Source of the DNA: Microbacterium sp. STN6
GTDB taxonomy: Bacteria > Actinomycetota > Actinomycetes > Actinomycetales > Microbacteriaceae
Assembly: GCF_026410545.1 (NCBI RefSeq)
Contig: NZ_JAPMIT010000002.1
Span: 124,001-188,000, forward strand
DNA: 64,000 bases
Direction of reading: 5' to 3'
Shown: in pieces, positions 56,881 through 63,225 of the stretch
Numbering within the stretch: the stretch's first letter is position 1
Layout of the letters: every line of letters begins with the position of its first letter
Position numbers and translations under genes: made by a program
Notes under the pieces: model-generated
What the model saw: only the letters and a program-made list of their open reading frames with translations
Told to the model about the DNA's origin: nothing
Database searches by the model: none

Positions 56881-58071
56881 TCACTGCGCCTCGCGGGCCT
56901 CGTAGCGGCGCATGTCGTCGCGCACGCCCAGGAAGCGGAACGGCCCTGCCGTCTGCGCCGCCGTCTCGAAGTCGCCGCCACGCACCGCCTCGACGTGTTC
57001 GTGCAGCGCGCGGTACTGCGCGTAGTCGATCGGCCTGCGCGCGTCGAGCACCTGCCGGTCGTGCTCAGTTCGCAGCAATGAGCGGTATCCCGGCTGCACC
57101 ACGCCGGTGAAGAACTCGGAGACGCTGCCAGAGCCGTAGCTGAAGAACCCGATGCGCTCACCGGCGAGATCGTCCGGCGCGTTCTCGAGCAGCGACAACA
57201 GGCCCAGGTAGATGGAGGCGGTGTAGCTGTTGCCGACCTGCTTGTTGTAGGTCAGGCTGTCCTCGATCTGCGCGGCGCGACCCGCAGCATCCAGGGGTGA
57301 TTCGGTGATGGCGACCAGGCGGTCGTGCGCCTTCTTCGCCATCTTTGTGAACGGCTGGTGGTAGCAGAACCGGTCGATCTCGCCGAACGAGACGCCACCA
57401 CGCGAGCGGTACTCGCCCCACGCGCCCTCGAGCGACTGCAGGTAGGCGGCCAGCGAGTACTTGCCGTCGACGACCGCCGCCGAGCGGTAGTTCGGCCGCC
57501 AGAAGTCGTGGATATCGTCGGTAAACAGCCCGGTCGGCGACTCGATCTCGATCAGCGACGGGTCCGCCGTCACCAGGAACGCCACGGCGGCCGCGCCCTG
57601 CGTGGGCTCGCCGCTCGAGTCGAGCGCATAACGAGCGATGTCGCTGGCGATCACCAGCACGCGCTCGCTCGGGTCGCGCGCGACGATTCCCAGAGCGAAC
57701 TGCAGCCCCGCCGTCGCCGAATAGCACGCCTGTTTCAGCTCGACAACGCGGCAGTGCGCCGACATGCCGAGCAGGCCATGCGCGTACACGCCCGCCGACT
57801 TCGACTGATCGACGCCCGATTCGGTGGCGAAGAGCACGGTACGGATGCCGGTGGTGCCGTGCCGCTGCAGAATCTGCCGGGCCGCGGCCGCCCCCATGGT
57901 CACGATGTCCTCGTCTTCGGCGGCGACGCTCATCTGCGTCTGGCCGATTCCGACGTAGAACTTGCCGACGTCGATTCCGTCGTGGTCGGCGAGCTCCTTC
58001 AAGTCGAGCACGTTGTGCGCGGTCGCGAATGCGAGATCGTCGATGCCGACCCTGATCGATGCCGTCGTCAT
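56881..58071 (-). CDS. mvaS: Hydroxymethylglutaryl-CoA synthase
   Basis: A 396-residue enzyme condensing acetyl-CoA with acetoacetyl-CoA to HMG-CoA, the first committed mevalonate step. Catalytic residues are visible: E84 in FATESGVDQSK, C116 in ELKQACYSAT and H238 in FCYHQPFTK. The YGSGSVSEFFTG segment completes the thiolase-fold active site. The ATG overlaps the HMG-CoA reductase stop (ATGA). It is the last gene of a six-gene bottom-strand operon. Confidence 0.95.
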   Translation of the reverse strand: MTTASIRVGIDDLAFATAHNVLDLKELADHDGIDVGKFYVGIGQTQMSVAAEDEDIVTMGAAAARQILQRHGTTGIRTVLFATESGVDQSKSAGVYAHGLLGMSAHCRVVELKQACYSATAGLQFALGIVARDPSERVLVIASDIARYALDSSGEPTQGAAAVAFLVTADPSLIEIESPTGLFTDDIHDFWRPNYRSAAVVDGKYSLAAYLQSLEGAWGEYRSRGGVSFGEIDRFCYHQPFTKMAKKAHDRLVAITESPLDAAGRAAQIEDSLTYNKQVGNSYTASIYLGLLSLLENAPDDLAGERIGFFSYGSGSVSEFFTGVVQPGYRSLLRTEHDRQVLDARRPIDYAQYRALHEHVEAVRGGDFETAAQTAGPFRFLGVRDDMRRYEAREAQ

Positions 58072-59114
58072 CTCTGGTTCCTCTCCAGCTTCAAGTGGGC
58101 GGCCATGAGCTCGCCCGGGTTCGTCTGCGCCGCCATGAGCGAGAGCTCGCCGCACAGCACGGTGGCCGCGCAGATGCCGGCGAGCCGCCTCGCGTTCTCG
58201 CCTGGTTCTCGATCTTCGGCGCATCCGAGCCTGGCCAGGTTCTCCGCGACGAAGGCGATGCCCTTGCCGTTGCCGACCGTGCCCACGACGAGGTTCGGCA
58301 GGGTGCACGAGAAGTACAGGGCGTCGCCGCGCACCTCGGCGTGCGTGATGCCCTGCGAGCCCTCGACGATGTTCGCGGCATCCTGCCCGGTGGCCAGGTA
58401 GAACGCGAGCAGCATGTTGGCGTAGTGCGCGTTCGCCGTGCGCAGCCCGCCGGCGAGGGTGGTGCCGATCAGGTTCTTGCGCACGTTCAGCTCGGCAATG
58501 CGCTCGGGCGTGGTGTGCAGCCGTCGTTCCACGATCTCGCGGGGGATCGTGATCTCGGCCACCACGTTCTTTCCCCGGCCGAGAAGCCCGTTGACCGCCG
58601 TCGCCTTCTTATCCGAGCAGTAATTGCCCGAGATCGAGCCGTAGCCGAGCTGCGGCAGCCAGGCGAGGATGCGGTCCATCAGCCGGTCGGCCGCGAGCGT
58701 CACCATGTTGTGGCCGGATGCGTCGCCCGTCGCGAACTCGAAGCGCACGAACAGCAGCCCGCCCACGATCTCGGTGCGCGCGTCGAGCAGCCGGGCGAAC
58801 CGGCTGATACCGGCCACCAGCTCGCGCAGCTCGTCGATGCGCTCGCGCAGGACGTGCACCGCGTCGAGGGCGGTCGCGGCGTCGTGCGCGTCGAACAGCA
58901 CCGAGCGGGTCATGCGCTCGTCAACGAGGGTCGCGACGATGCCGTGCTCCACGAGCGTGGAGATGCGGGCGCCACGGTTGACCGAGGGCCACAGCGGGGT
59001 CTCGAAGGTGGCGAGCGGCACCTCCTGCTCGCCGGTCACGACGTTGCCGCTCAGCTTCAGCGGCCCGACCCACTTCAGCGGGATGGGTGCTGTCTGCTGC
59101 GTCTGTTCGCTCAT
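58068..59114 (-). CDS. mvaA: Hydroxymethylglutaryl-CoA reductase
   Basis: A 348-residue enzyme reducing HMG-CoA to mevalonate with NAD(P)H. Candidate catalytic residues are E38 (ATFETPLW), K169/K170 (SDKKATAVN), D245 (TGQDAAN) and H340 near the C-terminus. The nucleotide-binding motif reads GDASGHNM (130-137), whereas the common form is GDAMGMNM. The protein is short and soluble, without a membrane anchor. It overlaps the isomerase gene by ATGA. The class (I or II) is not decidable without alignment. Confidence 0.92.
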   Translation of the reverse strand: MSEQTQQTAPIPLKWVGPLKLSGNVVTGEQEVPLATFETPLWPSVNRGARISTLVEHGIVATLVDERMTRSVLFDAHDAATALDAVHVLRERIDELRELVAGISRFARLLDARTEIVGGLLFVRFEFATGDASGHNMVTLAADRLMDRILAWLPQLGYGSISGNYCSDKKATAVNGLLGRGKNVVAEITIPREIVERRLHTTPERIAELNVRKNLIGTTLAGGLRTANAHYANMLLAFYLATGQDAANIVEGSQGITHAEVRGDALYFSCTLPNLVVGTVGNGKGIAFVAENLARLGCAEDREPGENARRLAGICAATVLCGELSLMAAQTNPGELMAAHLKLERNQR

Positions 59115-62245: not shown

Positions 62246-63225
62246 GCGGCGCTGCCGTCGGTGCTGTCTTCGGCGGTGACGATCCAGGCGTTCGCGGCGC
62301 CGGTGCGCGTCAGCCGTGCGGCCAGCAGTTCAGCGGATGCCGCACTCTCCGCCAGCGCAATGATGCACCCGCCGCGGCCGCCCCCGGTCAGCTTCGCCCC
62401 CAGCGCTCCGTCGCCCAGGGCGGAATCCACCAGCCGGTCCAGTCGTTCGTTGCTCACGGTGAGCTCGCGCAGCAACTCGTGAACGCGGGTCATGCGTCGC
62501 CCGAGGCTCGGGGTGTCGCCGGCCGCGAGATCCTGCTCGGCTCCCTGCGTCTCGGCGGCGATGCCGTCGATGATGCCATGTACGCCACTCTCGTCGCGTG
62601 CGAGCAATTCGGCGACCGCAGCGACCGCCTCGCGGGTCGCACCCGGCACTCCGGTGTCGGCGATGACGAAGGTCGCGGGCACGGCTACGGGCAGCGTCTG
62701 CACCCGGCCCGCCCGAAAGCGGATGGGCGCGTCGGCGACGACGGCCCGCGCATCCAGGCCGCTTGCGCTGCCGTGCGCGACGGCCTCCGCAGCCTGGATC
62801 AGCCGGAAGTGTGTTTGCTCGTCGAGCGCTTCGCCGGCCCACGCCGCTATTCCGGCGCTGATGGCGGAGGCGACGGCGGCGCTGGAGCCGAGGCCACGGC
62901 CGGCGGGGATCGAGCCGTCGATGCGCACGGTCAGGTCGGCAGCGGGGCGGTGTAGCGCGTCGAGGGTCTCGGCAATGGCGGTGGCCGGCGCGCCGAGACG
63001 GGCGGGCGCATCCGCTATGGGCCCCGAGTACAGGGCGGATTCGATGCGCACAGGGCCGGGAAGGGTGCGTGCCGACGCCGTGAGGCTCAACCCGGGCACC
63101 GGGAGGGCGATGGCCGGCGCCCCGTACACGACGGAGTGCTCGCCGAACAGGATCACCTTGGCATGCGCGCTCGCGGAGGCGAGCCGGGAATCGAGCAACG
63201 GTGACCGGCCGAGCGTGCGGGTCAT
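62242..63225 (-). CDS. mvaK1: Mevalonate kinase
   Basis: A 327-residue GHMP kinase, first gene of the operon. Motif 1 is HAKVILFGEHSVVYGAPA, motif 2 PAGRGLGSSAAV (107-118), and motif 3 KLTGGGRGGCII. The sequence ASGLDARAV provides the catalytic Asp. ATG 63225 follows an AGGAG. The operon promoter must lie in 63226-63401, but no strong consensus is visible there. Gene order matches the mevalonate cluster described in Streptomyces sp. CL190. Confidence 0.94.
   Translation of the reverse strand: MTRTLGRSPLLDSRLASASAHAKVILFGEHSVVYGAPAIALPVPGLSLTASARTLPGPVRIESALYSGPIADAPARLGAPATAIAETLDALHRPAADLTVRIDGSIPAGRGLGSSAAVASAISAGIAAWAGEALDEQTHFRLIQAAEAVAHGSASGLDARAVVADAPIRFRAGRVQTLPVAVPATFVIADTGVPGATREAVAAVAELLARDESGVHGIIDGIAAETQGAEQDLAAGDTPSLGRRMTRVHELLRELTVSNERLDRLVDSALGDGALGAKLTGGGRGGCIIALAESAASAELLAARLTRTGAANAWIVTAEDSTDGSAA

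What the first reader, a model, noticed from the sequence alone, without database searches (positions are those of the whole stretch)
56881..63225. Complete mevalonate operon in a genome that also has the MEP-pathway gene ispH
Six genes, overlapping by 4-11 nt, encode every step from acetoacetyl-CoA to IPP/DMAPP. The order mvaK1-mvaD-mvaK2-fni-mvaA-mvaS matches the cluster described in Streptomyces sp. CL190. ispH at 46248-47366 belongs to the alternative MEP route. Actinobacteria with both normally use mevalonate for special isoprenoids, yet no prenyl synthase or terpene gene is adjacent here.
Basis: partly seen in the sequence, partly recalled or inferred. Interest (0 to 1): 0.55.

Follow-up and report, generated by a model that had tools for sequence, protein, structure and literature searches.

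The report
Mevalonate operon alongside intact MEP pathway
This bacterium carries two complete routes to the building blocks of isoprenoids, and the acquired mevalonate operon also seems to have taken over a step that relatives perform with a gene in their carotenoid-pigment operon; the double pathway is a known kind of situation, while the gene swap looks like a new and testable detail.

Summary
Six intact, overlapping genes at 63225-56881 (minus strand) encode a full mevalonate (MVA) pathway, mvaK1-mvaD-mvaK2-fni-mvaA-mvaS. The genome is a 3.1 Mb Microbacteriaceae member with every MEP gene too (dxs, dxr, fused ispDF, ispE, ispG, ispH): a true dual-pathway organism. The operon lies between two toxin-antitoxin modules in a slot downstream of ychF that holds other genes in the one congener held. 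mvaS occurs in 54 of 398 family genomes, and the genes have several origins.

No prenyl synthase is adjacent, but none is in sampled family relatives either. The strongest link is different: the genome has no detected type I IPP isomerase (idi-1). Its C50-carotenoid operon matches the congener's except that idi-1, between marR and crtE there, is missing. The operon's Fni is the only IPP isomerase detected. Across 53 crtB-bearing family genomes, idi-1 is absent in 11 of 13 with fni and 2 of 40 without; only four independent contrasts exist, so this is suggestive. Sixteen of 54 MVA-positive relatives have no dxr. Best reading: a laterally acquired supplementary IPP source feeding general and carotenoid pools.

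The parts
62242..63225 (-). mvaK1, mevalonate kinase (327 aa)
   Evidence: TIGR00549 235 bits, above cut-off 163
61268..62245 (-). mvaD, diphosphomevalonate decarboxylase (325 aa)
   Evidence: TIGR01240 282 bits, above cut-off 171; only 161 on the alternative phosphomevalonate decarboxylase model (cut-off 475); aligns over residues 4-317 with 5v2l
60183..61271 (-). mvaK2, phosphomevalonate kinase (362 aa)
   Evidence: TIGR01220 428 bits, above cut-off 166
59111..60193 (-). fni, type II (FMN) IPP isomerase (360 aa); the only IPP isomerase detected in this genome
   Evidence: TIGR02151 355 bits, above cut-off 281; start codon; aligns with 1p0k and keeps the H-x-N-x-x-Q-E stretch and a conserved Lys (roles recalled); single fni match, no TIGR02150 match at E<=1e-15 in G000
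58068..59114 (-). mvaA, class I-like HMG-CoA reductase, catalytic domain only (348 aa)
   Evidence: TIGR00533 283 bits, below that model's cut-off; best solved relatives are HMG-CoA reductases 6hr7, 2q1l and 1dq8 (class recalled)
56881..58071 (-). mvaS, HMG-CoA synthase (396 aa)
   Evidence: TIGR01835 495 bits, above cut-off 360; aligns with 3v4n incl. the Glu, Cys and His that I recall as catalytic
46248..47366 (+). ispH, last MEP enzyme; conserved position upstream of the variable slot
   Evidence: NF002189 576 bits, above cut-off 444; syntenic in G001, G003, G033, G034
53367..54533 (+). ychF GTPase, last gene of the conserved left flank of the variable slot
   Evidence: Pfam YchF-GTPase_C; 89% identical in G001 and syntenic
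54681..55847 (+). TIR-domain, FxsC-like protein inside the variable slot (GC 58% against 69%)
   Evidence: Pfam TIR_2, NCBIfam FxsC_Nterm below cut-off
56010..56694 (+). HigB-like toxin (56010-56405) and HTH antitoxin (56299-56694), left neighbour of the operon
   Evidence: Pfam HigB-like_toxin and HTH_3
63402..63863 (-). MazF/PemK-like toxin, right neighbour of the operon, same strand
   Evidence: Pfam PemK_toxin 76 bits; a likely small antitoxin reading frame overlaps its 5' end across the window edge (by eye)

Best explanation
A working, laterally acquired MVA operon supplements an intact, chromosomal MEP pathway. Shown: both gene sets are complete; the operon sits in a variable slot between toxin-antitoxin modules; the congener lacks it; the carotenoid operon lacks idi-1 exactly where the congener has it; fni is the only IPP isomerase detected. 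Inferred: MEP supplies essential isoprenoids. The MVA operon adds acetyl-CoA-derived IPP, and Fni turns part of it into DMAPP for prenyl chains and C50 carotenoids (CrtEb adds further C5 units), so that Fni replaced Idi-1. The state resembles the stage from which other family members went on to lose MEP.
For: MVA genes. MEP genes: dxr, dxs, ispG and ispDF, ispE candidate, ispH. Slot: synteny with congener G001 up to ychF and again from C2:189295, with one 37% hit between; G001 holds other genes there. Patchiness: mvaS in 54 of 398 family genomes, 16 of 85 genera; AU test rejects one clade for the family's MvaA+MvaS (p 1.8e-51), tree. Isomerase: G000 fni 1, idi-1 0; G001 fni 0, idi-1 2; marR-idi1-crtE-crtB-crtI-crtYe-crtYf-crtEb in G001, the same without idi1 in G000. 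Among 53 crtB+ genomes idi-1 is absent in 11 of 13 fni+ and 2 of 40 fni-. MEP loss: 16 of 54 MVA+ genomes lack dxr, while all 31 MVA- family genomes have it.
Against: No expression or flux data. The fni/idi-1 pattern gives only 4 independent pairs on the CrtB+CrtI tree (3-4 agreeing; the sign test cannot reach 0.05), and in g70 both isomerases coexist (2 genomes). Two MVA- reduced genomes (G010, G013) also lack idi-1, so idi-1 can be lost without fni. The window operon has GC 70.7% like the genome, and its MvaA+MvaS row has no close relative (67% at best), so recent transfer and donor are not shown. Only one congener was available. No CrtR-like site of the kind guessed from the marR-crtE spacers was found in the window.
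Confidence: 0.6

Rival explanations
1. Streptomyces-type partition: the MVA operon feeds one specialised isoprenoid made in a particular growth phase, whose genes lie elsewhere in the genome.
For: Same gene order as Streptomyces loci; such partition is described for Streptomyces (PMC13001223 section 17); prenyl-synthase homologues lie near MVA genes in some Streptomyces, Nocardia and Asanoa loci (15 of 96 loci).
Against: G000 has 3 polyprenyl synthases, the same number as its MVA-negative congener, so no extra synthase came along; none near the operon in the family loci scanned. Terpene cyclases and aromatic prenyltransferases were not searched for genome-wide.
Confidence: 0.15
2. M. marinum-type stress accessory: MVA gives IPP when the oxygen-sensitive Fe-S enzymes IspG and IspH fail; carotenoid and isomerase links are incidental.
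For: In M. marinum the MVA genes are dispensable, functional and matter under peroxide (PMC12632256, abstract and passages). Compatible with the gene content seen here.
Against: Does not explain the missing idi-1 or the fni/idi-1 complementarity. M. marinum kept a second idi elsewhere; in this genome none was detected.
Confidence: 0.17
3. Passing cargo: the operon is an island gene set with little use, kept by chance between addictive toxin-antitoxin modules.
For: Variable slot with HigBA-like and MazF-like genes on the two sides.
Against: All six frames intact, five with family scores above cut-off; host-like GC; host idi-1 missing, so fni appears to be in use.
Confidence: 0.08

Closest known systems
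MVA gene cluster of Streptomyces sp. CL190 (recalled; order checked on other Streptomyces loci)
   Same: Six genes in the same order, type II isomerase inside, class I-like HMG-CoA reductase, MEP pathway also present in the organism.
   Different: No prenyl synthase beside it here; sits in a slot flanked by toxin-antitoxin genes; idi-1 not detected in the genome.
Dual-pathway Mycobacterium marinum (PMC12632256, abstract and passages)
   Same: Complete MEP and MVA sets, MVA in an operon with an isomerase.
   Different: M. marinum keeps an additional idi elsewhere and has an idsB2 tied to the operon; here fni is the only isomerase detected and no prenyl synthase is linked.
MVA operons of other Microbacteriaceae (Plantibacter, Labedella, Pseudoclavibacter and unnamed genera)
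   Same: Homologous genes, mostly the same order.
   Different: 26 of 54 lack fni and keep idi-1; Labedella G033 has the genes split in two places; 16 of 54 have no dxr.
CrtR-controlled C50 carotenoid operons of actinobacteria (PMC5401885, passages)
   Same: Divergent MarR gene, then crtE-crtB-crtI-crtYe-crtYf-crtEb.
   Different: idi-1, present in the congener between marR and crtE, is absent here.

Membership tests
Complete bacterial mevalonate pathway | HMG-CoA synthase, HMG-CoA reductase, mevalonate kinase, phosphomevalonate kinase, diphosphomevalonate decarboxylase all present | tested here: met
   (mvaA below its model's cut-off but aligned along the catalytic domain with solved HMG-CoA reductases)
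Complete bacterial mevalonate pathway | An IPP isomerase, needed because MVA makes only IPP | tested here: met
   fni
Complete MEP pathway | dxs, dxr, ispD, ispE, ispF, ispG, ispH all present in the same genome | tested here: met
   dxs 585 bits; dxr; ispDF fusion over TIGR00453 and TIGR00151 cut-offs and ispG; ispH; ispE is a GHMP kinase with both Pfam domains at C2:70440-71381, named by exclusion of thrB and galK, no ispE-specific model run
Streptomyces CL190-type MVA cluster | Order mvaK1-mvaD-mvaK2-fni-mvaA-mvaS on one strand | tested here: met
Streptomyces CL190-type MVA cluster | Linkage to a terpenoid natural-product cluster | tested here: not met
   The three PF00348 hits of G000 are at C1:36565, C1:945844 and C3:228706, none on the contig of the operon; terpene cyclases were not searched
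Dual-pathway bacterium with both pathways active | Both pathways carry flux | not testable with these tools
   needs labelling or mutants

The most novel reading that the evidence does not exclude
In Microbacteriaceae an acquired fni-bearing MVA operon repeatedly displaces the type I isomerase of the host's C50-carotenoid operon. This isomerase swap makes the MVA operon hard to lose and opens the way to loss of the MEP pathway. The window genome is caught after the swap and before MEP loss.
Probability: 0.4. Interest if true: 0.6.

Novelty: new member of a known kind. Interest (0 to 1): 0.42.

Why it matters
Why some bacteria keep two complete routes to one product is an open question. Here one family holds MVA-free, dual and dxr-less genomes side by side, with a visible molecular step (idi-1 missing where fni is present) that suggests an order of events and can be tested by simple gene deletions.

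Tried and rejected
Relic MEP pathway: rejected, all genes found. Alternative MVA branch through phosphomevalonate decarboxylase: rejected, mvaD scores 161 against a cut-off of 475 on that model and 282 against 171 on the classical one, and mvaK2 is present. Regulation shared with the carotenoid operon: a motif drawn by eye from the marR-crtE spacers of G000 and G001 was not found in the window with up to 3 mismatches. Base composition as a mark of transfer: the operon is host-like; only the TIR and HigBA genes are clearly low in GC. Sigma-70-type promoter and terminator scan: nothing useful. Association of fni with dxr loss: strong by genome (15 of 28 against 1 of 26), not by genus (5 of 8 against 1 of 8, p 0.12), so left as a trend. 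dxr loss was tested by one gene in the 54; dxs was also absent in 5 of 5 genomes of g6 and ispF in G006. GHMP hits at C1:568641 and C4:358268 were first ispE candidates and were dropped as thrB and galK, by eye from neighbours and translations. Literature: searches listed no report of the fni/idi-1 complementarity in this family; Trutko et al. 2005 on isoprenoid pigments of Microbacteriaceae is cited in PMC5552033 (passages) but was not seen, and may overlap with parts of this.

Full report
Observation. Searches give mvaK1 62242-63225, mvaD 61268-62245, mvaK2 60183-61271, fni 59111-60193, mvaA 58068-59114 and mvaS 56881-58071, all on the minus strand and all open. Five pass the NCBIfam cut-off of their family. 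mvaA is below the cut-off of its HMG-CoA reductase model but aligns along the catalytic domain with solved HMG-CoA reductases. Solved relatives align over nearly the whole of fni and mvaD and most of mvaS, and the residues that I recall as catalytic are kept in fni and mvaS. ispH at 46248-47366 is confirmed.

The MEP pathway is complete. The window is C2:124001-188000 of a 3,145,727-base genome in 5 contigs, 99.99% complete. dxs is at C2:792409-794253 (585 bits, cut-off 466), dxr at C1:625391-626446, ispG at L037:13010-14158 in the same 15 kb as dxr, a fused ispD-ispF at L166:2206-3366, ispE most likely at L185:941-1882 (a GHMP kinase with both Pfam domains; not tested with an ispE-specific model) and ispH in the window. 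The organism is a genuine dual-pathway bacterium by gene content. It belongs to the family of Labedella (Microbacteriaceae): G033 contig C2 has the same length as the Labedella phragmitis contig of L085.

Where the operon sits. Gene order from C2:165 kb to ychF is shared with the congener G001, and in parts with G003, G007, G021, G033 and G034. It resumes with G001 at C2:189295. Between them G000 has a TIR/FxsC-like gene, a HigBA module, the MVA operon and a MazF-like toxin, with a possible small antitoxin frame at the window edge (by eye). G001 has about 18 kb of other genes there, including ROK/oxidoreductase, ABC-transporter and dehydrogenase genes. The only hit of this stretch in the G001 region is one 37% match. 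So the operon occupies a variable slot. It is not compositionally odd (GC 70.7%; window 69.0%), while TIR and HigBA are 58% and 60%.

Distribution. Over-cut-off mvaS was found in 6 of 59 relatives and in 54 of 398 genomes drawn from the family, in 16 of 85 genera. A tree of MvaA+MvaS (62 rows chosen by me out of the loci that held both genes) scatters the family: g93 lies with Nocardia and Streptomyces, and Labedella and g77 with Cellulomonadaceae and Oceanospirillales. The window branches alone, at 67% identity to its best relative. Holding the family rows as one clade is rejected (AU p 1.8e-51; quick tree, with long rows present). The genes therefore have moved between lineages; the donor of the window operon is unknown.

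Dual or replaced. Of the 54 MVA-positive genomes 38 have dxr and 16 do not: all 5 of g6, both of g72, the one g77, 6 of 7 of g94, 1 of 4 of g20 and 1 of 2 of g70. In some searches all 31 MVA-negative family genomes have dxr. dxs is also absent in 5 of 5 g6 genomes, and ispF in G006. The family thus contains MVA-free, dual and dxr-less members.

The isomerase. MEP's IspH makes IPP and DMAPP; MVA makes IPP only and needs an isomerase (established knowledge). In 68 family genomes (54 MVA-positive, 14 MVA-negative picked by me from the relatives) fni was found in 28 of 54 and 0 of 14. idi-1 was found in 26 of 26 MVA-positive genomes without fni, in 2 of 28 with fni (both g70), and in 12 of 14 MVA-negative ones (missing in the small genomes G010 and G013). 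Part of this could be loss of the whole carotenoid cluster, so I looked at crtB: present in 13 of 28 fni-positive, 26 of 26 fni-negative MVA-positive and 14 of 14 MVA-negative genomes. Within these 53 genomes idi-1 is absent in 11 of 13 with fni and in 2 of 40 without (Fisher p 7e-8 by genome, 0.004 by genus with g1 and g14 counted on both sides; relatedness not removed).

The carotenoid operon itself. In congener G001 the order is marR (divergent), idi-1, crtE, crtB, crtI, crtYe, crtYf, crtEb, mmpl; in G000 it is the same, with heme genes behind marR in both, but without idi-1 (crtYe, crtYf and mmpl are named by position and recalled homology, crtE and crtB by NCBIfam and Pfam, UbiA and MarR domains). 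No idi-1 match at E 1e-15 exists elsewhere in G000; G001 has two. The same contrast is seen in genus g14 (G014 with idi-1, G275 and G398 without), and G002 and G170 of g2 also lack it. On the CrtB+CrtI tree the label fni needs 4 changes and gives 4 independent pairs, of which on average 3.5 agree and 0.0 disagree. A sign test on so few pairs cannot be significant. As a control, carrying MVA without fni goes with no change in idi-1 (5 pairs, on average 4.9 without difference).

Interpretation. The simplest account is that an fni-bearing MVA operon brought its own isomerase, after which idi-1 of the carotenoid operon was dispensable and lost. The operon then supplies extra IPP and the only detected IPP isomerase. 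What each pathway feeds is inferred. In M. marinum MEP is essential and MVA an accessory (PMC12632256, abstract and passages); in Streptomyces MVA serves natural products (PMC13001223 section 17). The number of polyprenyl synthases is 3 in both G000 and G001, which speaks against a dedicated new product. Of 96 MVA loci, 15 held a prenyl-synthase homologue, none in this family.

Novelty. Dual pathways and variation within genera are described (PMC13001223, passages and section 17: 2.42% of 4,249 species have both), and idi beside crtR/crtE in actinobacteria is described (PMC5401885, passages). The operon is therefore a new member of a known kind. I found no report of the fni/idi-1 complementarity in the searches named under Tried and rejected; the library lacks most subscription papers.

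Noticed in passing
G038 (same order, 1.8 Mb, one contig), L170:4796-9447: Carries mvaK1-mvaD-mvaK2-fni but no mvaS match, and no dxr, dxs or ispF: neither pathway looks complete, as if it took up mevalonate. HMG-CoA reductase was not searched genome-wide.
   Followed up: partly
G033 (Labedella phragmitis), L042 and L168: The MVA genes are split: mvaA-mvaS at C2:189 kb and mvaK1-mvaD-mvaK2 at C2:596 kb, no fni.
   Followed up: partly
window 54681-55847: TIR-domain protein resembling FxsC, low GC (58%), in the variable slot; possible defence or signalling gene.
   Followed up: no
window 56010-56694 and 63402-63863, antitoxin frame of the latter in L041:1776-2870 (-): Toxin-antitoxin modules (HigBA-like; MazF-like with a likely small antitoxin frame) on both sides of the MVA operon.
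   Followed up: partly
genus g6, e.g. G006 L046: 1.3-1.9 Mb genomes with an fni-bearing MVA operon and no dxr or dxs: MVA has apparently replaced MEP in a lineage with small genomes.
   Followed up: partly
Oceanospirillales loci such as L094, L102, L114: Close relatives of the actinobacterial mvaA (about 67-72% to the window) with a different gene order (mvaA-fni-mvaS, then mvaD), suggesting transfer between phyla.
   Followed up: no
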